Assembly: GCF_031180965.1 (NCBI RefSeq)
Contig: NZ_JAPSLH010000007.1
Location: 121,826 to 185,825, forward strand
Reading direction: 5' to 3'
Length of the DNA stretch: 64,000 nucleotides
Origin: Chelativorans sp.
GTDB lineage: Bacteria > Pseudomonadota > Alphaproteobacteria > Rhizobiales > Rhizobiaceae
The notes beneath the pieces are model-generated. The model was given only the letters and a program-made list of their open reading frames with translations. It was not told where the DNA came from and did not search any database. The translations under genes were made by a program, and so were the position numbers. Position 1 is the stretch's first letter; every line of letters starts with the position of its first letter. Below are positions 56,630 through 64,000 of this stretch, piece by piece.

Positions 56630-56706
56630 CGGAGTGTAGCGCAGTCTGGTAGCGCACCTCGTTCGGGACGAGGGGGTCGCAGGTTCAAATCCTGCCACTC
56701 CGACCA
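56630..56706 (+). tRNA. tRNA-Pro (anticodon CGG)
   Basis: A 77-nt cloverleaf can be drawn. The acceptor stem is CGGAGTG with CACTCCG, the D-arm is GCGCAGTCTGGTAGCGC, the anticodon stem is CCTCG/CGAGG with loop TTCGGGA (anticodon CGG), the T-arm has GGTTCAAATCC, and CCA is encoded after discriminator A. It reads CCG. Phage-like accessory genes begin right after its 3' end, making it a likely integration site. Confidence 0.95.
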
Positions 56707-56845
56707 GAAAAATCAACGGCTTACCCGAAAGCTACAGACCTCCCCATCCGGCCACGCAATGTTTCCGCAATGATTGGGAAGGTTTTGGCATGCTGACCCT
56801 CGCCGCCGCCACCGTCATCACCTGCTTACACCTCGCCGCTGTGGA

Positions 56846-57010
56846 CTAAGAGTCCCGCTCAGCTTCCCGGCGTTCCAGTTCGCGTTCGACGGCTTCACGG
56901 ATGAAGTCGGAACGCTTCTCCTTCGGCTTCAATACGGCATCCATTCGCGCGAGCGTTCCTTCCGGGAAGCGCGCCGGCATCTGCTCGTGATTGATCTGCT
57001 TCCTGCCCAC
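56846..57010 (-). CDS. Small ribbon-helix-helix-like protein (YlcI/YnfO-type)
   Basis: This is a ~54-residue protein in the reading MPARFPEGTLARMDAVLKPKEKRSDFIREAVERELERREAERDS preceded by GRKQINHEQ, matching the compact RHH DNA-binding pattern of YlcI/YnfO-like phage proteins (strand then two helices, SDFIREAVERELERRE). I placed the start at a GTG (57010); the ORF can be extended to 57070. The TGATATCA core and GATATCACCTA repeats lie just upstream, so it may regulate itself and the divergent genes. Confidence 0.65.
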   Translation of the reverse strand: MGRKQINHEQMPARFPEGTLARMDAVLKPKEKRSDFIREAVERELERREAERDS

Positions 57011-57062
57011 CGGTCGGTGGCTACCTGATATCAACAATTCGGTCAATCTCGCCTCCAAAAGA

Positions 57063-57117
57063 GATATCACCTATTGACGGCGATACCTGATATCACCTAA
57101 ATAGAAGATATCACCTA
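57063..57117. repeat. Direct repeat array GATATCACCTA overlapping a divergent promoter
   Basis: GATATCACCTA occurs three times at 57063-57073, 57089-57099 and 57107-57117, and a related TGATATCA core lies at 57026-57033. TTGACG at 57074 and TAAATA at 57098 (18-nt spacing) form a plausible plus-strand promoter inside the array. The arrangement is that of an operator for the neighbouring RHH-like regulator, facing the gene at 57131. Confidence 0.65.
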
Positions 57118-57130
57118 AGGAGGCAAGAAC

Positions 57131-57493
57131 ATGAAGGAAGTTTGCTACACGGTTCGAGGGGCATGGCCGTTCCCGCTGGACATGCTCCGGCATGACGGTT
57201 CACGAGCAGCAAGTCCGGAAGACCAGTCCAAGATCGATCGCTACGCAGCGGATCACGCGCCGGACAGAAGCGTGTTCGAGCCTGTCGAGATCAGCCTTGT
57301 TGGCCCGCACAAGCCGAACACGGCGCGCTGGGAGAGCTTCACATGGTCGGTTCCGGCGGACGCTGATTATGCCATGATGAAGGAGCACCGCGCGAGAGGA
57401 CTAGAACGCAAGAGGCTCCGCGACGCAGCGCTATCTAAACTGTCGCGTGAAGAGCGAGAGGCACTAGAGTGGTATGCCGGGAAGGCGCTATGA
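57131..57493 (+). CDS. Hypothetical phage-type protein
   Basis: This 120-residue protein starts at MKEVCYTVRGAWPFPLDMLRHDGSRAAS with GGAGG upstream. A SWSVPAD-like strand and a charged helical C-terminus follow (MMKEHRARGLERKRLRDAALSKLSREEREALEWY). I do not recognise a family. It is the first gene of the plus-strand island operon behind the repeat array and overlaps the HNH gene by four bases (ATGA). Confidence 0.75.
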   Translation: MKEVCYTVRGAWPFPLDMLRHDGSRAASPEDQSKIDRYAADHAPDRSVFEPVEISLVGPHKPNTARWESFTWSVPADADYAMMKEHRARGLERKRLRDAALSKLSREEREALEWYAGKAL

Positions 57494-58161
57494 CCCGCCT
57501 CTGCTCGGTCGAAGGGTGCGGCAAGGCCGCCTATTGCACACAAACGGTGTGCCGCAACCACTGGCTTGCTTTAAAAAGATATGGGAACACCGGCCGGATG
57601 CGCGACCAGTCGTGTGTGCATTGCGGCGTCATCTACCGAACCAACGAGCCCAAGTCGGTCCACTGCAGCGAGCTTTGCCGCTTTGAAGAGAAGGTCGACA
57701 AATCAGCCGGGCACGGACCCGACGGTACTTGCTGGCAATGGACCGGAACCAAACACGGGAAAGGCTACGGCCATTTCAGTTCCGGCCAAGGGTCAGCACG
57801 CGTGGTCGACAAGGCGCATCGTGTTGCCTTTCGACTTTATTGTGACCACGAGCCTGGCAACCTGCTCGTCTGCCATACCTGCGACAACCCAGCCTGTGTA
57901 AACCCGGATCACCTGTTCCTCGCTACGAACACCGTGAACCTTCTTGACCGTCAAAAGAAGGAGCGCCAAGCTCGCGGCGAGATGGCAGGACGCGCGCGCT
58001 TACGCGCCGATGAGGTAAGGGCGATGCGGGCGGGGAAGAAAGAAGCGATCGAGCGAGCGCGATCTAGAGGGGTGTCCGATTCTGCGATCCGGCAGGCCCT
58101 CCGCGGGGATTCGTGGAGACACCTCAATTCTGATGCGCCACCGATAAGGCCGACTCGATGA
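57490..58161 (+). CDS. HNH endonuclease
   Basis: This 223-residue protein has an N-terminal cysteine-rich part (LCSVEGCGKAAYCTQTVCRNHW; SCVHCGVIYR; VHCSELCRF) and a C-terminal HNH domain (LLVCHTCDNPACVNPDHLFLATNTVNLLD) of the phage HNH_3 type, with C-X2-C zinc pairs. A basic C-terminal helix (ARLRADEVRAMRAGKKEAIERARSRGVSDSAIRQAL) resembles nuclease-associated modular HTH parts. Homing-type or packaging-associated nicking is possible. It is coupled to genes on both sides by ATGA overlaps. Confidence 0.88.
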   Translation: MTRLCSVEGCGKAAYCTQTVCRNHWLALKRYGNTGRMRDQSCVHCGVIYRTNEPKSVHCSELCRFEEKVDKSAGHGPDGTCWQWTGTKHGKGYGHFSSGQGSARVVDKAHRVAFRLYCDHEPGNLLVCHTCDNPACVNPDHLFLATNTVNLLDRQKKERQARGEMAGRARLRADEVRAMRAGKKEAIERARSRGVSDSAIRQALRGDSWRHLNSDAPPIRPTR

Positions 58162-58526
58162 GCGCCGCCGCAACGATCATTTTTTGCGCTTCGCTCATGG
58201 CCATAGACGGAGATAGCATCCGCTGCGACGGCGAGAACATGCGCCTGCTCGGCCCCGGCCAGCCGAACAAGTCGGGCATCGACACGCCTGAGATCGGGAA
58301 CGCGCAGTGCCAAGCCGAGCGCTTCCTCGGCGAGCAGGCGAAGCGCCGCCTCGAGGAACTGCTGCGGCAGGAGGTGAGGATCGAGGACAGCGGGGTGCGC
58401 GACCGGTACCGCCGGCCGCTGGTGTGGGTGAGGATGCCGAACGGAGAGGACGTCGGCGAAGTGCTTCTGCGCGAGGGCTATGCCCTGCCCTGGCGGCCGG
58501 GGAAGCGTGTCAGCTGGTGCGGTTGA
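58158..58526 (+). CDS. Thermonuclease-like (SNase) protein
   Basis: This 122-residue protein has staphylococcal-nuclease-like features: MAIDGDSIRCDGENMRLLG, GIDTPEI with the catalytic Asp/Glu, and DRYRRPLVWVRMPNGEDVGEVLLREGYAL with the catalytic Arg. It is shorter than typical SNase domains and has no clear signal peptide, so it may act in the cytoplasm on DNA or RNA. It overlaps the HNH stop in ATGA. Confidence 0.85.
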   Translation: MSAAATIIFCASLMAIDGDSIRCDGENMRLLGPGQPNKSGIDTPEIGNAQCQAERFLGEQAKRRLEELLRQEVRIEDSGVRDRYRRPLVWVRMPNGEDVGEVLLREGYALPWRPGKRVSWCG

Positions 58527-58589
58527 CACCCGGAACAAAACAGGAATATATCCCTTTCATTGCGGCGCCCAAAGACACGAGGAACGGTC

Positions 58590-58841
58590 ATGCGCCGCTA
58601 CATCATCCGCACCCTTCAGGATTTGGTCGACCACGAAATGCAGCTCACGGCCCATTGTGGCTCGGCGTTCTGCGGCCACCACAAGGTGCTGGACCTGAAG
58701 GAGATGATCGCCACCTTCGGACCGGACTATTCCTGTATCGGAGACGACAGGCTCAGGAATGCGATCCGCTGCGAGCGGTGCGGTCACAAGGGCGGATCAG
58801 TTACCATATCGGTTGTTACGAAAACGCAGCACGTAGCCTAG
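58590..58841 (+). CDS. Hypothetical zinc-ribbon-like protein
   Basis: This 83-residue protein starts at MRRYIIRTLQDLVDHEMQLTAH with GAGG upstream. Cys pairs (HCGSAFCGHH and IRCERCGHKGG) could bind zinc. DLKEMIATFGPDYSCIGDDRLRN resembles phage or rhizobial hypothetical proteins with CxxC ribbons. It belongs to the island operon. No function is known. Confidence 0.7.
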   Translation: MRRYIIRTLQDLVDHEMQLTAHCGSAFCGHHKVLDLKEMIATFGPDYSCIGDDRLRNAIRCERCGHKGGSVTISVVTKTQHVA

Positions 58842-58854
58842 AGGGGAGAAGCAT

Positions 58855-59103
58855 ATGCCCCTACGGCCACCGCGGCAGGACTGGCCTGCTTCCGTCTATT
58901 CGGTTGACGAGAATTTCGAGATTGTCGAGGAACTGGCCCAGTGCGCCAATTTCGGCATAGGATATGTCGCCTACAAGAAGGCGCTCCAAATGCGCTCCTA
59001 TTCGATCGTTCAACTTTGCGAGAAGGGGCGAATCGTCTGGACGGCAAAGACCGGAGGGGTGGACCCGGAGACCGGCAAGGTAACAATTTTGTGGGAGAAG
59101 TGA
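58855..59103 (+). CDS. Hypothetical island protein
   Basis: This 82-residue protein starts at MPLRPPRQDWPASVYSVDENFEIVEELAQCANFGIGYVAYKKALQMRSYSIVQLCEKGRIVW, with GAGGGGAGAAGCAT just upstream. It shows mixed strands and helices and no recognisable motif. It is 13 nt after the previous gene and 3 nt before the SRAP gene, so it is part of the same operon. Confidence 0.68.
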   Translation: MPLRPPRQDWPASVYSVDENFEIVEELAQCANFGIGYVAYKKALQMRSYSIVQLCEKGRIVWTAKTGGVDPETGKVTILWEK

Positions 59104-59106
59104 CAT

Positions 59107-59787
59107 TTGTGCGGCCGTTTCACCCGATACCTCACCTGGTCCGAGATCCACGGCCTCTACCGCCTGACGCTCGACTGGGAAAAGCAGCGCAATGACGAGC
59201 CGAACTACAACGTCTGCCCTACTGACGAGGTGCCCTTCGTCACAGCCGGCGAGAACGGCGCGCAAAAGCTTCACCTGGGCCGCTGGTGGTTGGTGCCATG
59301 GTGGGCGAAGGAGATGCCCAAGGCAGCCATGTTCAATGCGCGGATCGAGACGGCCGACAGCTCCGGCGCCTTCAAGGATGCATGGAGGACGACGCGCTGT
59401 CTGATCCCAGCCGATGGTTTCTATGAGTGGACAAAGAACCCCGGCGACGACGGCCGCGACCCCTGGCACATTCACCTGCCAGATCATCAGCCGTTCAGCT
59501 TCGCCGGCCTCTGGGCCTATAACAAGAGGCTGGACGTGACGAGTTGCACGATCATCACCATGGCGGCGGCTGAGCCGATCTCGCAGCTGCATGATCGTCA
59601 GCCCGCCATTCTGGACCCGGCCGCTTATGACGAATGGCTGGACCCTTCCACGCCTGGCGAGACGCTGAAGCCGCTGCTGTTCGAAAGGAATATCGACTCT
59701 CAGCTGCGGTTCTACCGCGTCGGCCGGGAGGTTAATTCGAACAAGGCGAAGGGTCCGAAATGCATAGAGCCGGTCAACCCGCTTTGA
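59107..59787 (+). CDS. SRAP (YedK/HMCES-like) SOS response-associated protein
   Basis: This 226-residue protein uses a TTG start, followed directly by Cys2 (CGRFTRY), the active-site nucleophile after removal of Met. The SRAP features WWLVPWWAKE, NARIETADSSGAFKDAWRTTRCLIPADGFYEW and a late His in ISQLHDRQPAIL are present. SRAP proteins cross-link to abasic sites in single-stranded DNA and protect them from nucleases. Placement beside LigD and nucleases suggests a DNA-repair or replication-protection set on the island. Confidence 0.93.
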   Translation: MCGRFTRYLTWSEIHGLYRLTLDWEKQRNDEPNYNVCPTDEVPFVTAGENGAQKLHLGRWWLVPWWAKEMPKAAMFNARIETADSSGAFKDAWRTTRCLIPADGFYEWTKNPGDDGRDPWHIHLPDHQPFSFAGLWAYNKRLDVTSCTIITMAAAEPISQLHDRQPAILDPAAYDEWLDPSTPGETLKPLLFERNIDSQLRFYRVGREVNSNKAKGPKCIEPVNPL

Positions 59788-59805
59788 GTTGGAGGGGAAG
59801 AGCAA

Positions 59806-59964
59806 GTGACACAGGATGAGCCAGTGATCAGGGATTTTGAAGCGCTCAAGGGAAAGAAGTGGGAAGAGGCGACCGAGGAGGAGCGTCGTGATTGGATAGA
59901 GGCGCGAGCCGAGCTCATGCAGATCCTGAACCCACCCTTCGATCCGTCAAAGCGGCAGCGCTGA
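59806..59964 (+). CDS. Small acidic/basic hypothetical protein (too short for ORF track)
   Basis: This 52-codon gene has a GTG start preceded by GGAGGGGAAG and reads VTQDEPVIRDFEALKGKKWE then EATEEERRDWIEARAELMQI and a PFDPSKRQR tail. It sits 18 nt after the SRAP stop and ends just before the run of ten C. Charged helical composition and the ribosome-binding site support it as a real gene. I do not recognise a family. Confidence 0.6.
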   Translation: MTQDEPVIRDFEALKGKKWEEATEEERRDWIEARAELMQILNPPFDPSKRQR

Positions 59965-59967
59965 GCG

Positions 59968-59977
59968 CCCCCCCCCC
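59968..59977. repeat. Homopolymer tract of ten C
   Basis: Ten consecutive C lie between the small gene and ligD, about 60 nt before the ligD TTG start. Such runs can slip in replication and could alter promoter or leader spacing, though they are also prone to sequencing error. Confidence 0.6.
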
Positions 59978-60038
59978 GGAACGAATCACCCCATCGAAGA
60001 TTGAGTCCGGTCTGTTTTGAGTACCGGGAGTTCGAGTT

Positions 60039-61880
60039 TTGGCGATCGGGCGGCGTACAAGTGCCCTTCGTGCGGAGCGGGCGGTTCGATCTGAACCGGC
60101 GCACCGGCCGCCGTCTTGGCTGGAGCAATACCGCGACGCGAAACGAGCGCCCTTCCCCGGCTTCATAGAACCATGCCACCCAACGCTGCGCAAGCGGCCG
60201 CCCAACGGCAATGATTGGGTGCATGAAATCAAGATCGACGGGTACCGGGCGCAGCTGCACGTCAATGACGGCAAGGTGAGGGTCTACACCCGCACAGGCC
60301 TGGACTGGACGGAGCGCTTCGCGCCGATCGCGGAAGCGGCAAAGGTCCTTGCTGGTCGCCAGCTGATCATGGATGGAGAGGCGACGGTCTTCGGCAAGAC
60401 TGGCCTGCCGGATTTTCAGGCTCTGCGGCGTGAGCTGGGAAAGCGAAGCTCGACCCGCCTGACCTTCCAGGCATTCGATCTGCTCTACCTCGACGGACAT
60501 GATCTGCGCGACCTCCCGCTGGTCGATCGGAAGGCCCTCCTGAAGGACCTCCTTGGCGAGCAGGCCGGCACATTGGCCTATGTCGATTTCCTCGAGCTGG
60601 AGGAAGGCGATCAGGTCTACCGGCACGCCTGCAAACTGGGCCTGGAGGGCATCGTCTCGAAACGTCGGGACGCGCCTTACCGATCAGGGCGGCAGGAAAT
60701 CTGGATCAAGGCCAAATGCGCCAAACGGGCCTCTTTCCCGATCATCGCATTTGTGGAGAAGCTGGGCGCGCGCCCGCGCCGGATTGCCTCGCTCTATCTC
60801 GGCCGATGGGAGGAAGACCGCCTGGTCTATGCCGGCAAGGCTGAAACCGGCTACACAATGGCCGCCGCGCGGGCAATCAGGGAAAGGCTCGACCCGCACA
60901 TCACCGGCAAGAGCCCGTTGTCTCATCCGATCAAGAAGCCGAAGGCCACCTGGGTCGAGCCAATTGTCGAGGCCGACATTGCGTATGGCGCAGAGACGGA
61001 TGACGGCCTGCTACGGGAGGCGGTCTTCAAGGGTTTGGTAGAGGAGAGCCAGGCGCCCGTACGCAAGGCCCCGAAAGTCGCGGCAACCCGTAGCGGCGTG
61101 CCCAAGGAGAACATTCTACAGCTGCTGCCGGACGCGGTCGTGCCGTCAAAGGAGCAGCTCGCCAACTACTGGACGCGGGTGGCGGACCGCGCACTGGGAT
61201 TCCTCGGCGGCCGGCCGTTGAAGCTGGTGCGGCACGTTCACGGCACCACGTTCTATCACAAGGGGCCGCTCCCCCCGATCCCGCCGGAGGTGCACCAGCT
61301 GCGCATCCAGAAGCGCGAGGGCGGCGAAGGCGTGCGGCTGTGGGTGGACGATCTTGCCGGCCTCTTGGGCTTGGTCGACATCGGTGTCGTCGAAGTGCAC
61401 CCCTGGGCGGCGGCGATCGACGACATAGAGCATGCGGACACGCTGATTTTCGACCTCGATCCCGGCGAGGGCATTGCGTGGGAGTTCGTGGTCGAGACCG
61501 CGCTGAACCTGCGCGATCGGCTGAAGCAGGAAGGTTTCGCGACATGGCCGAAGCTGACCGGCGGCAAGGGCGTTCATCTCATGGCGCCGCTGCCGGAGAA
61601 GATGACGCACAACGCAGTGCATGCCTACGCCAAGCGACTGGCTCAGGAGTTCGCCGGAACAGACGACCGCTACACCACTTCCGCGCAGGCTGCGCGTCGC
61701 GGGAAGCTCTTCATCGACTATCTCCGCAATGGCCGGGGCACGACCGCGATCGGCACCTATTCGCCACGGGCGAGGTCCGGCTTTCCGGTCGCCGCTCCGG
61801 TCACGTGGCGCGACATTGACCGAGGGATGAGACCGGATGCCTTCACCATTGCTCGTCTGCCAAAGCGGAGGCTGAGATGA
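60039..61880 (+). CDS. ligD: ATP-dependent DNA ligase LigD (ligase and polymerase domains)
   Basis: This 613-residue protein has an N-terminal ATP-dependent ligase domain with the nucleotidyl Lys in HEIKIDGYRAQL (near residue 66), MDGEATVF, LEGIVSKRRDAPYRSGRQEIWIKAK, and a C-terminal LigD-type primase-polymerase domain (TFYHKGPLPPIPPEV, TLIFDLDPGEG, KGVHLMAPL). The usual phosphoesterase domain is absent. The start is TTG after an in-frame stop at 60018, with GGGAG eight bases upstream. It joins double-strand breaks in NHEJ, normally with Ku; no ku gene is in the window. Confidence 0.93.
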   Translation: MAIGRRTSALRAERAVRSEPAHRPPSWLEQYRDAKRAPFPGFIEPCHPTLRKRPPNGNDWVHEIKIDGYRAQLHVNDGKVRVYTRTGLDWTERFAPIAEAAKVLAGRQLIMDGEATVFGKTGLPDFQALRRELGKRSSTRLTFQAFDLLYLDGHDLRDLPLVDRKALLKDLLGEQAGTLAYVDFLELEEGDQVYRHACKLGLEGIVSKRRDAPYRSGRQEIWIKAKCAKRASFPIIAFVEKLGARPRRIASLYLGRWEEDRLVYAGKAETGYTMAAARAIRERLDPHITGKSPLSHPIKKPKATWVEPIVEADIAYGAETDDGLLREAVFKGLVEESQAPVRKAPKVAATRSGVPKENILQLLPDAVVPSKEQLANYWTRVADRALGFLGGRPLKLVRHVHGTTFYHKGPLPPIPPEVHQLRIQKREGGEGVRLWVDDLAGLLGLVDIGVVEVHPWAAAIDDIEHADTLIFDLDPGEGIAWEFVVETALNLRDRLKQEGFATWPKLTGGKGVHLMAPLPEKMTHNAVHAYAKRLAQEFAGTDDRYTTSAQAARRGKLFIDYLRNGRGTTAIGTYSPRARSGFPVAAPVTWRDIDRGMRPDAFTIARLPKRRLR

Positions 61881-62065
61881 TCACCCTGAACGCATTCTTG
61901 AACAAGGACGACACGCAAGTCGCCCTGCAGTTTCCCGAGCTCGACGGCGCGACAGTCACCCTCACCCGCGACGATCTGGACGAGTTCATTGCGGTTCTGA
62001 GAAACATCCGCGAGTGCATGCAGCCGTCCGATGCGCAGCCGCCGCAAAACCAACTGCATTCCTAA
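61877..62065 (+). CDS. Small hypothetical protein coupled to LigD
   Basis: This 62-residue protein starts at MITLNAFLNKDDTQVALQFPELDGATVTLTRDDLDEFIAVLRNIRECMQ. The ATG overlaps the ligD stop in ATGA, so it is translationally coupled. It is acidic with a helical C-terminal half. I cannot name the family; a partner or immunity-type role is speculative. Confidence 0.7.
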   Translation: MITLNAFLNKDDTQVALQFPELDGATVTLTRDDLDEFIAVLRNIRECMQPSDAQPPQNQLHS

Positions 62066-62072
62066 TGAGCGG

Positions 62073-62363
62073 TCAAGCAGACCGAACCGGGACATAGACG
62101 GCAATTCTCCTGCCGTCGGTCAGCGAGACGCAGTTTGCCTCTGTGAAGGCTCCCGCCTCGACATACCTGGGGACTATCTTCAGATCGCTGCCCTCTAGCG
62201 GCTCCCCTTGAAGGGGCGTGTAGGGCGCCGATCTCTCCCCGTCAGTCACGATCACCAAGCCGTCTGAGCGCACATCGGCTACCGTAAGGTCATCGCCTTC
62301 CATGGTCGCCGACCGGGGCAACGATGCCTGGAATTCCTCGTCGTAAGCTGCTTCTTCGTGCAT
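62073..62363 (-). CDS. Hypothetical beta-rich protein
   Basis: This 96-residue acidic protein reads MHEEAAYDEEFQASLPRSATMEGDDLTVADVRSDGLVIVTDGERSAPYTPL. Its strand pattern (LVIVTDGE, LKIVPRYVEAG, CVSLTDGRRIAVYVPV) suggests a small beta-barrel. It is convergent with the ligD operon and lies downstream of the terminator of the lysis-type cassette. No family is recognised. Confidence 0.6.
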   Translation of the reverse strand: MHEEAAYDEEFQASLPRSATMEGDDLTVADVRSDGLVIVTDGERSAPYTPLQGEPLEGSDLKIVPRYVEAGAFTEANCVSLTDGRRIAVYVPVRSA

Positions 62364-62402
62364 GCACCCGGAACGGCAGAACGCGAGGGATGTTCCAAAA
62401 CG

Positions 62403-62434
62403 AAAAAAGCCCCGCCGGCCGGAGCCAGCGGGGC
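62403..62434 (-). terminator. Rho-independent terminator after lysis-type cassette
   Basis: On the minus strand GCCCCGCTGGCTCCGGCCGGCGGGGC folds with a GCCCCGC/GCGGGGC stem and is followed by TTTTTTCGTTTT. It lies about 70 nt past the stop of the last minus-strand cassette gene at 62505. Confidence 0.82.
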
Positions 62435-62504
62435 GAATTGGTACTGAAAGGGATCCCGGGGTGAGGGGCTCCGGTCATCCTAACTGAAGTGCCGGGGAAA
62501 AGTT

Positions 62505-62846
62505 TCACCGCTTCCGGATCGCGTTCCCGAGCTCGCGCATCTCGCGGCGGAGCTCTCCGATCTCCCGCGCCAAGTCTTCGGAGTTCTCGCAGATGGTGTG
62601 AAGCACGGCACGGTTGCGCTCCGCCGCCTGACGGTTTTGCACCTGCTCGACATTGTTGGCTTCGATTGCCGCCGCGAGCTGCTTGACCGCGCCACTATCG
62701 ATCAGCGCTCCCGCGATTTCCATCGTTTGCTCTTCGGGCGGTTTCCGGCGCTGGCCCCACCACAAGCCGAAGGCTGCGAGGATCCCGAGCACGCCGTAGC
62801 CGATGAGCTGGGCAATCGGGACGATCTGTTCAGAGTCCAGGTTCAT
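62505..62846 (-). CDS. Small single-span membrane protein of phage cassette
   Basis: This 113-residue protein has one N-terminal transmembrane helix (PIAQLIGYGVLGILAAFGLWWG) and a long charged coiled-coil-like tail (KQLAAAIEANNVEQVQNRQAAERNRAVLHTICENSEDLAREIGELRREMRELGNAI). The layout is that of phage holin-like or spanin-like small proteins, but I cannot name it. It overlaps the upstream gene by 17 nt and ends the cassette. Confidence 0.7.
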   Translation of the reverse strand: MNLDSEQIVPIAQLIGYGVLGILAAFGLWWGQRRKPPEEQTMEIAGALIDSGAVKQLAAAIEANNVEQVQNRQAAERNRAVLHTICENSEDLAREIGELRREMRELGNAIRKR

Positions 62847-63318
62847 CGCGCTTCACCACCCTCGCCTGCTGTGAAGCACCGACGTCTGCCCATGCTCTGA
62901 AGAGGTTCCACGCGTCCTGCGCCATGGCGGCGAGGTAGATCACCATACCGGTCCCGGCTGCGCCATGGTTGAGCCACGCCAGCATCATGCCCAACGCAAC
63001 CTGTCCCCAGAAGATGCAGGCCGCGAAAGAGGCAAGCCCGCGCATGTGCGGCGAGTATGGGAAAGCTCGGAAGGTGCCGTTGATGACCAGCGCGGTGAGG
63101 CGCAGCAGCCCCACCACGAGGCAAATCACGGCCCAAGTGTCCTCATCCGCCATGCGCGCCAGTTCGGAAAAGGAGGGCGCATTCGCGAAGGTGTTTCCGT
63201 CACCGGAGAGAACCGCGGCCCAGCCGAGTATGGCGCCGGTCAGCACCCATTCCGAAACACGCTGAGGAAAGTGCTCACGGATGCCTGTCGCCAGGCGAAG
63301 AACGATCATCTCCAGCAT
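62830..63318 (-). CDS. Multi-span membrane protein of phage cassette, holin candidate
   Basis: This 162-residue protein has about four hydrophobic segments (WVLTGAILGWAAVLSG, TWAVICLVVGLLRLTALVING, LASFAACIFWGQVALGMMLAWLN, GTGMVIYLAAMAQDAWNLF). Its position within a lysis-type cassette and overlap of both neighbours suggest a holin or pore-forming protein. Sequence does not match a named holin that I recognise. Confidence 0.68.
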   Translation of the reverse strand: MLEMIVLRLATGIREHFPQRVSEWVLTGAILGWAAVLSGDGNTFANAPSFSELARMADEDTWAVICLVVGLLRLTALVINGTFRAFPYSPHMRGLASFAACIFWGQVALGMMLAWLNHGAAGTGMVIYLAAMAQDAWNLFRAWADVGASQQARVVKRDEPGL

Positions 63319-63518
63319 CCTCTCCCCGCCCCGAACGTGTTGTGAGCCGCCACATGTTCTGCGAAGGGTCGGTCATTGCGGATGATGAAATCGCGCGTCG
63401 GTGCTGCCGGCGTCAGCTTGCGCCAGCCGTCGCACTCACTCACAGGTGCCGTCGTCTGACATCCGGCCGCCGAGAGCCCGGCAAAGAGCAGCATCGTCCA
63501 GATTGCGAATTGTCTCAT
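63306..63518 (-). CDS. Rz1-like outer-membrane spanin lipoprotein
   Basis: This 70-residue protein starts at MRQFAIWTMLLFAGLSAAGCQTTAP with lipobox LSAAGC, then CDGWRKLTPAAPTRDFIIRNDRPFAEHVAAHNTFGAGRGCWR, a pattern I recall from phage small lipoproteins next to Rz. It lies partly inside the Rz-like gene in another frame (63436-63518), the classical overlapping Rz/Rz1 arrangement. It would link inner and outer membrane during lysis. Confidence 0.75.
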   Translation of the reverse strand: MRQFAIWTMLLFAGLSAAGCQTTAPVSECDGWRKLTPAAPTRDFIIRNDRPFAEHVAAHNTFGAGRGCWR

Positions 63519-63678
63519 CGGTGGAGTTCCTTTCGCGGAGAAGGTCGACGGAGCGCTCGAGCGCGGCACGGCGCTCGTCATTGGCGCCGGCGCGGTAGGC
63601 TGCGGTGTGCGACCAGGCGAGACCCGCCAGCACTGCGAGCGCCGCACCCAGCTTGATCCATGTTCCAAGGCCGAACAT
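63436..63678 (-). CDS. Rz-like inner-membrane spanin
   Basis: This 80-residue protein starts at MFGLGTWIKLGAALAVLAGLAWSHTAAYRAGANDERRAALE with one N-terminal membrane helix followed by a charged helical periplasmic part, the form of an i-spanin. Its ATG overlaps the stop of the preceding gene by one base, and its C-terminal half overlaps the Rz1-like gene in a different frame. It is short for Rz, so the identity is inferred mainly from the overlapping arrangement. Confidence 0.7.
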   Translation of the reverse strand: MFGLGTWIKLGAALAVLAGLAWSHTAAYRAGANDERRAALERSVDLLRERNSTDETIRNLDDAALCRALGGRMSDDGTCE

Positions 63679-64000
63679 CACACCGCCTCCGGAATGGCGT
63701 CGCCCTCGTCGGTCTGCCGGCTTTTCCACCAGCCGTAAGCGGCCCAGGAGAGGCCACCAAGCACGAGGAGGACCGCGATGATGGTGAGCGCCCCGGACAG
63801 CCATTCGAGGCCGGGAACGCCGGCAAGCCGTTCCGCCGCAATGTCTATCTGCTGGCGCGCGGTCTCAATACCAGCCCCGGTGACGACTGCCGCACCGCCC
63901 TGCTTCGCCTCTTCGGTCTCCAGCGGCCCCAGCGAGCCCGGAACCTCCTCCGGCGCGACCTTGAACGACGACAGAGCGCGCATGGTCTCGGGACCGGCTA
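63678..64000 (-). CDS. Membrane-anchored C-terminal fragment, possible endolysin tail (partial)
   Basis: The frame is open to the window edge; the first Met in the window is at 63983, but upstream codons (GPET before MRALSSF) allow extension. Visible are an acidic linker (APEEVPGSLGPLETEEAKQGG), an amphipathic part and one C-terminal transmembrane helix (LSGALTIIAVLLVLGGLSWAAYGWW). This looks like the C-terminal anchor of a larger phage cell-wall enzyme, by position before Rz-like genes. The catalytic part is not visible. Confidence 0.6.
   Translation of the reverse strand, partial: AGPETMRALSSFKVAPEEVPGSLGPLETEEAKQGGAAVVTGAGIETARQQIDIAAERLAGVPGLEWLSGALTIIAVLLVLGGLSWAAYGWWKSRQTDEGDAIPEAV

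What the first reader, a model, noticed from the sequence alone, without database searches (positions are those of the whole stretch)
56630..64000. tRNA-Pro-associated phage-derived island carrying a DNA-repair and nuclease gene set
Immediately after a CCA-encoding tRNA-Pro, the window switches to compact accessory genes: regulator, HNH, SNase, small unknown proteins, SRAP, a small acidic protein and a two-domain LigD, with ATGA-type coupling in several places and an opposing lysis-type cassette. SRAP plus LigD plus two nucleases in one operon on an element is unusual and suggests a dedicated module for handling abasic sites and breaks, for example during phage replication or host defence.
Basis: partly seen in the sequence, partly recalled or inferred. 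Interest (0 to 1): 0.7.

Follow-up and report, generated by a model that had tools for sequence, protein, structure and literature searches.

The report
Prophage end-joining and abasic-site repair cassette
A virus genome resting in a bacterial chromosome at a proline tRNA gene carries a small operon with a DNA-break-sealing enzyme (LigD) and an abasic-site-binding protein (SRAP), a recurrent but untested repair cassette of temperate phages that would have to borrow its DNA-end-binding partner, Ku, from the host.

Summary
The tRNA-Pro(CGG) is attL of a prophage of about 55 kb. The window's contig ends at 64000; an overlapping contig and the next carry terminase, portal, protease, tape measure, primase, helicase and integrase, ending in a perfect 46-bp copy of the tRNA 3' end. 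Congeners keep betB-tRNA-Pro; the nine examined lack the operon there. The element carries SRAP and a two-domain LigD (ligase + polymerase, no phosphoesterase domain), both with catalytic residues, and no Ku; the host has its own Ku and LigD. A second prophage, at tRNA-Arg, carries the same Zn-ribbon/SRAP/LigD end but lacks the HNH and SNase genes, so the nucleases are not part of a fixed unit. In phage contigs, 11 of 46 SRAP clusters have a LigD-type ligase or Ku within 5 kb (0 of 35 control loci). A four-cysteine protein recurs beside SRAP, Ku and phage ligases, and in one related prophage Ku fills LigD's place. SRAP-Ku/ligase neighbourhoods and rhizobial phage ligases were already described; the Ku-less bifunctional LigD with SRAP in a phage is a new variant. 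Most likely a lysogen-expressed accessory that seals breaks with host Ku. Function is inferred.

The parts
56630..56706 (+). tRNA-Pro (CGG), integration target
   Evidence: ARAGORN
56662..56707 (+). attL core, 46 bp, identical to C52:208949-208994 (minus) = attR
56846..56980 (-). probable short ribbon-helix-helix-like repressor (ORF open to 57070; ATG at 56980 preferred)
   Evidence: phrog_949 E 1e-4; no Pfam support; inference from sequence
57063..57117 (+). three GATATCACCTA repeats (57063, 57089, 57107) in the divergent control region; TTGACG-N17-CTAAAT promoter candidate from 57074; AGGAGG before 57131
   Evidence: only occurrences in the window, 0 of 100 shuffles reach 3
57131..57493 (+). 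unknown phage protein, 120 aa
   Evidence: phrog_11674
57469..58161 (+). HNH endonuclease; no copy at the tRNA-Arg prophage's cassette end
58158..58526 (+). SNase-family nuclease; no copy at the tRNA-Arg prophage's cassette end
58560..58841 (+). small Zn-ribbon-type protein (four invariant Cys), recurrent partner of SRAP, phage ligases and Ku
58855..59103 (+). unknown 82 aa, conserved in the sister loci only
59107..59787 (+). SRAP (YedK/HMCES family), C2, N77, R79, E107, H162 present
59806..59964 (+). small acidic protein, 52 aa
60039..61880 (+). LigD: ligase (KIDG) + primase-polymerase (DLDPG), no phosphoesterase domain
61877..62065 (+). small acidic protein, 62 aa, ATGA-coupled to LigD
62073..63983 (-). 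opposing lysis-type cassette (spanin pair and small membrane proteins), continuing into contig C62

Best explanation
A complete-looking temperate prophage sits in tRNA-Pro(CGG). Next to attL, outside its late genes and convergent with the lysis genes, it carries an accessory operon of its own. I infer that the operon is expressed in the lysogen from its own promoter under a local RHH-like repressor, and that it extends the host's tolerance of double-strand breaks and abasic sites: host Ku binds broken ends, prophage LigD fills in (polymerase domain) and seals (ligase domain), while SRAP caps abasic sites in single-stranded DNA so that they do not become breaks. The Zn-ribbon protein is probably an accessory or regulator of this set. 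The HNH and SNase genes are variable neighbours. Shown: prophage, gene content, intact catalytic residues, no Ku on the element, Ku in the host, recurrence of the partners. Inferred: expression in lysogeny, cooperation with host Ku, benefit.
For: att repeat of 46 bp; integrase, S24 repressor and structural genes; operon spacing and control region. Active-site residues kept in LigD and SRAP. Two host Ku genes beside the host LigD and none elsewhere in the genome. A second prophage with a different att (50 bp at tRNA-Arg) carries the same Zn-ribbon/SRAP/LigD end. Association in viral contigs: 11 of 46 SRAP clusters with LigD-type ligase or Ku within 5 kb against 0 of 35 tail-fibre control loci, Fisher p = 0.002, in many different arrangements, so not one inherited block. 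In related prophage L084, which shares lysis genes, Ku follows SRAP where LigD follows it here. In S. saheli (L055) LigD (76%), two Ku genes, Zn-ribbon and SRAP lie within 5.4 kb. Published contextual link of SRAP with Ku/ATP-ligase and Zn-ribbon proteins (PMC3765255).
Against: No experiment. No Ku on the prophage, and interaction of this LigD with host Ku is untested. About three quarters of phage SRAP clusters have neither ligase nor Ku within 5 kb, partly because contigs end there. No LexA box in or before the operon, so no sign of damage control. The RHH assignment is weak. The control loci differ from the SRAP loci in sampling and probably in hosts.
Confidence: 0.5

Rival explanations
1. 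The genes serve the phage during infection: LigD and SRAP repair or circularise incoming or replicating phage DNA, for instance after nicking or base removal by host defences.
For: Many rhizobial phages keep a LigD-type ligase in the same end region (348 viral contigs encode a relative); glycosylase defences that make abasic sites in phage DNA exist (PMC11078745); phage Mu Gam is a Ku-like end binder (PMC1378119).
Against: The operon lies outside the early/replication block, on the opposite strand, with its own control region; deleting YedK did not change Brig1 immunity (PMC11078745); the phage ligases found in IMG/VR lack the polymerase domain.
Confidence: 0.25
2. Independent cargo: the end of the prophage next to att is a hot spot that collects host genes, and SRAP and LigD merely share it.
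For: The same end also collects HNH, SNase and other variable genes; prophage LigD derives from a Sinorhizobium-type LigD while its SRAP is of another lineage (SRAP of L055 only 28% identical).
Against: Zn-ribbon, SRAP, ligase and Ku co-occur far more than in control loci; the Zn-ribbon gene lies a median 528 bp from phage ligases against 3026 expected, divergent and upstream in 31 of 37; SPbeta pairs SRAP with a LigD-type ligase in Firmicutes.
Confidence: 0.2
3. SRAP is a DNA-damage sensor that helps to trigger prophage induction, as suggested by Aravind and colleagues, with LigD incidental.
For: Proposal in PMC3765255.
Against: The prophage has its own S24 repressor at the other end; no LexA site near SRAP; later biochemistry shows SRAP to be an abasic-site cross-linker (PMC9436759).
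Confidence: 0.05

Closest known systems
SRAP (DUF159) neighbourhoods with Ku and ATP-dependent ligase (Aravind et al. 2013, PMC3765255)
   Same: SRAP next to an end-joining ligase and a small Zn-ribbon protein
   Different: Here on a prophage, without Ku, LexA or a mutagenic polymerase beside it
Bacillus phage SPbeta yoqW-yoqV
   Same: SRAP directly followed by a LigD-type ligase on a temperate phage
   Different: yoqV is ligase only (270 aa), no polymerase domain; unrelated phage; no Zn-ribbon hit
Sinorhizobium phages phiLM21, phi2LM21, phi3LM21 and Rhizobium phage PPF1
   Same: LigD-type ligase in the accessory end downstream of lysis genes or near att; phi2LM21 also has SRAP and the Zn-ribbon (PMC5537653)
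   Different: Ligase domain only, about 40-44% identical to the ligase half here
Sinorhizobium pSymB-type LigD without phosphoesterase domain
   Same: Closest relatives of the prophage LigD, 75-78% identical, same two domains
   Different: Replicon-borne; next to two Ku genes in S. saheli and S. glycinis, no Ku found beside it in S. meliloti 4H41
Canonical bacterial NHEJ locus (Ku + LigD), e.g. this host's C49 locus
   Same: Ligase and polymerase activities
   Different: Host LigD has a phosphoesterase domain, flanking Ku genes and only about 41-43% identity

Membership tests
tRNA-integrated temperate prophage | direct repeat of the tRNA 3' end at both ends | tested here: met
   46 bp identical
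tRNA-integrated temperate prophage | integrase near one end, structural and packaging genes inside | tested here: met
   phrog_1 integrase; terminase, portal, protease, tape measure, tail fibre
tRNA-integrated temperate prophage | site without the element in relatives | tested here: met
   betB-tRNA-Pro kept in congeners; in nine fetched loci no homologue of the operon genes at that place. The right flank is not conserved, so no clean two-sided empty site
tRNA-integrated temperate prophage | excision and infectivity | not testable with these tools
   needs induction
LigD (TIGR02776) | NHEJ-type ligase domain with KxDG and Prim-Pol domain | tested here: met
   470.5 bits against cut-off 373.2; motifs conserved; pol domain alone 202.0 against 214.7 for TIGR02778 but 224.7 against 27.4 for Pfam LigD_Prim-Pol
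LigD (TIGR02776) | phosphoesterase domain (present in many, not all LigD) | tested here: not met
   absent
SRAP (YedK/HMCES) | Cys2 nucleophile and the Asn, Arg, Glu, His active site | tested here: met
   C2, N77, R79, E107, H162 invariant; aligned with YedK chains
Complete NHEJ operon | Ku on the same element | tested here: not met
   Ku only at C49:43084 and 46656
SRAP-Ku/ligase neighbourhood | SRAP beside an ATP-dependent ligase and/or Ku | tested here: met
   window 59107-61880
SRAP-Ku/ligase neighbourhood | associated Zn-ribbon protein of the published family | tested here: inconclusive
   four invariant Cys; identity with the 2013 family could not be checked; fold search gave nothing significant
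SOS-controlled cassette | LexA site upstream | tested here: not met
   no GTTC-N7-GTTC in the element part of the window
Known anti-phage defence system | match to PADLOC models | tested here: not met
   only weak nuclease-domain and marginal hits

The most novel reading that the evidence does not exclude
Temperate phages carry a dedicated SRAP-coupled end-joining system of interchangeable parts (Zn-ribbon, SRAP and either LigD or Ku), each phage supplying one half of the NHEJ pair and borrowing the other from its host, with SRAP protecting abasic-site-bearing ends before joining.
Probability: 0.22. Interest if true: 0.75.

Novelty: new variant of a known kind. Interest (0 to 1): 0.5.

Why it matters
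Two prophages of one strain, in different tRNA genes, bring the same SRAP-LigD set to a host that already has NHEJ, and a related phage brings Ku in the same place. This gives a simple genetic system to test whether SRAP cooperates with end joining, a link so far mostly drawn from gene neighbourhoods. It also offers a candidate reason why so many rhizobial prophages keep LigD-type ligases.

Tried and rejected
(1) Cassette as a bacterial, non-phage island: rejected by integrase, structural genes and att repeat. (2) SOS control: no LexA site. (3) Defence system: no PADLOC support. (4) Phage LigD with polymerase domain in IMG/VR: scans with LigD and with the polymerase domain found none. (5) Fold of the Zn-ribbon protein: AlphaFold mean pLDDT 78, no significant PDB match; the ribbon is inferred from the four cysteines. 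(6) Sigma-70 scan with the E. coli consensus found no promoter; the alphaproteobacterial candidate is read by eye. (7) Host LigD as source of the prophage LigD: rejected by the tree (100/100 with Sinorhizobium LigD). (8) Fixed SRAP-LigD-nuclease unit: rejected, the tRNA-Arg prophage's cassette end has no HNH or SNase. (9) Scan for the lysis protein 62830-63318 to compare the slot in more phages: one relative only.

Full report
Place and extent. The window is G000:C60:121826-185825 and C60 ends at window base 64000. Its last 127 bases are the first 127 of contig C62 (34,905 bp). The far end of C62 overlaps the end of C52 (96% over 141 bp, the difference being an inverted hairpin loop). On C52 a perfect 46-bp copy of the tRNA-Pro 3' end lies at 208949-208994, minus strand. 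The sum is about 55 kb. Contig C61 shares the same 127-mer, so the C60-C62 join is the most likely but not the only one.

It is a prophage. C62 encodes tail fibre (phrog_5616, E 9e-224), tape measure, head maturation protease, portal, terminase, primase, cytosine methylase and helicase; the C52 part has an S24-type repressor and a tyrosine integrase beside attR. GCAATGTTTCCGCAATG occurs next to both att sites, probably integrase arm sites (inference).

Relatives. The betB-tRNA-Pro order is kept in most congeners searched, and no homologue of the operon genes follows the tRNA in the nine loci examined. Several show other sequence after the tRNA, so the site may be used by other elements. LigD of the prophage type (at least 60% identity) was found in 6 of 299 family genomes, this one included; SRAP of this type in 28 of 299.

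Operon. Genes 57131-62065 are colinear with overlaps or short gaps. Upstream lie three GATATCACCTA repeats, the only ones in the window, a TTGACG-N17-CTAAAT promoter candidate and AGGAGG before the first start. A short RHH-like ORF faces away from the operon. The repeats contain TATCACC, resembling the WATCACW heptads bound by the RHH protein omega of pSM19035 (PMC9499535); control by the local RHH protein is inference.

Proteins. LigD has ligase and primase-polymerase domains and no phosphoesterase domain; KIDG and DLDPG are kept. Its nearest relatives are Sinorhizobium LigD proteins at 75-78%, joined with 100/100 support and far from the host's own LigD. In S. saheli and S. glycinis this LigD is followed by two Ku genes; in S. 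saheli the Zn-ribbon and SRAP genes follow as well. SRAP keeps Cys2, Asn77, Arg79, Glu107 and His162. SRAP proteins cross-link abasic sites in single-stranded DNA and react with lyase products at 3' ends (PMC9436759). No Ku lies on the prophage; the host has two beside its own LigD.

Second prophage. C49:669-718 is a 50-bp exact copy of the 3' end of the tRNA-Arg on C64. Beyond it come the Zn-ribbon and 82-aa genes, then C61 with SRAP (96%), LigD (92%) and the 62-aa gene. HNH, SNase and the 120-aa gene have no copy there. C64 carries a different phage body, with only a tail-fibre stretch 87% identical to C62; its integrase was not identified by profile. So two different prophages share this end module. 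A third copy on C46 has SNase, Zn-ribbon and SRAP but no LigD, with luxR and luxI genes between SNase and the Zn-ribbon, and C10 holds a broken LigD.

Recurrence. Of 61 SRAP-bearing viral loci 16 also hold a LigD-type ligase or Ku. After clustering SRAP at 90% identity, 11 of 46 have one within 5 kb, against 0 of 35 loci fetched with the tail fibre. Arrangements differ: SRAP then Ku, ligase then SRAP, divergent, convergent. In L084, which shares the lysis proteins 62505-62846 and 62830-63318, Ku follows SRAP. The four-cysteine protein is within 5 kb in 15 of 46 SRAP clusters, in 37 of 80 ligase loci and in 5 of 8 Ku loci, against 5 of 35 control loci. With ligases it is usually divergent and directly upstream (31 of 37; median gap 528 bp, 3026 expected). 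In family genomes ligases again lie near several SRAP genes. SRAP genes on plasmids can instead sit beside umuD/imuA/Y-family polymerase genes.

Comparison with the literature. SRAP neighbourhoods with Ku, ATP-ligase and Zn-ribbon proteins, and SRAP in SPbeta, were described in 2013 (PMC3765255). ATP-dependent ligases in sinorhizobial prophages, and SRAP in phi2LM21 within an accessory right arm, were described in 2017 (PMC5537653). I found no description of a bifunctional LigD with SRAP on prophages, of the Ku/LigD alternation, or of the link of the four-cysteine protein with phage ligases, in the papers searched.

Limits. The genome is a draft and C62 may be partly collapsed between the two prophages. 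The HMMs used for the survey were built from few sequences, and the control loci differ in sampling. No function was tested.

Noticed in passing
G000:C49:640-718, C64:703-780, C61, C64: Second, different prophage in tRNA-Arg(TCT) of the same genome with a 50-bp att copy and the same SRAP-LigD end; ARAGORN calls the att copy a tRNA.
   Followed up: partly
L012:9294-10858 (G000:C46): A luxR-luxI quorum-sensing pair lies between SNase and the Zn-ribbon gene in a third, apparently remnant copy of the cassette.
   Followed up: partly
window 57022-57117: Three GATATCACCTA direct repeats, plus a further TACCTGATATCA copy, in the divergent control region; heptad-like half TATCACC.
   Followed up: partly
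G000:C62:26831-27868 (L027:11831-12868): DUF4062 protein on the opposite strand beside the terminase region of the prophage; function unknown.
   Followed up: no
G000:C62:348-2147 (L011): O-acetyltransferase (Acyl_transf_3, phrog_3333) next to the lysis/tail region, possibly a surface-modifying lysogenic conversion gene.
   Followed up: no
L117, L118, L122: Nearly identical viral contigs of another lineage with Zn-ribbon, SRAP and Ku in one direction.
   Followed up: no
L347 (S. meliloti ml59 pSymB): A thermonuclease-family gene lies about 3.4 kb upstream of the closest relative of the prophage LigD, echoing the SNase here.
   Followed up: no
G000:C49:43084-47171: Host NHEJ locus with two Ku genes on either side of LigD; a separate stand-alone LigD-type polymerase on C38.
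   Followed up: no
C62/C52 junction: The two contigs differ by inversion of a 7-bp hairpin loop (GCGGCATC-GGACACA-GATGCCGC against TGTGTCC); assembly effect or real variant.
   Followed up: no
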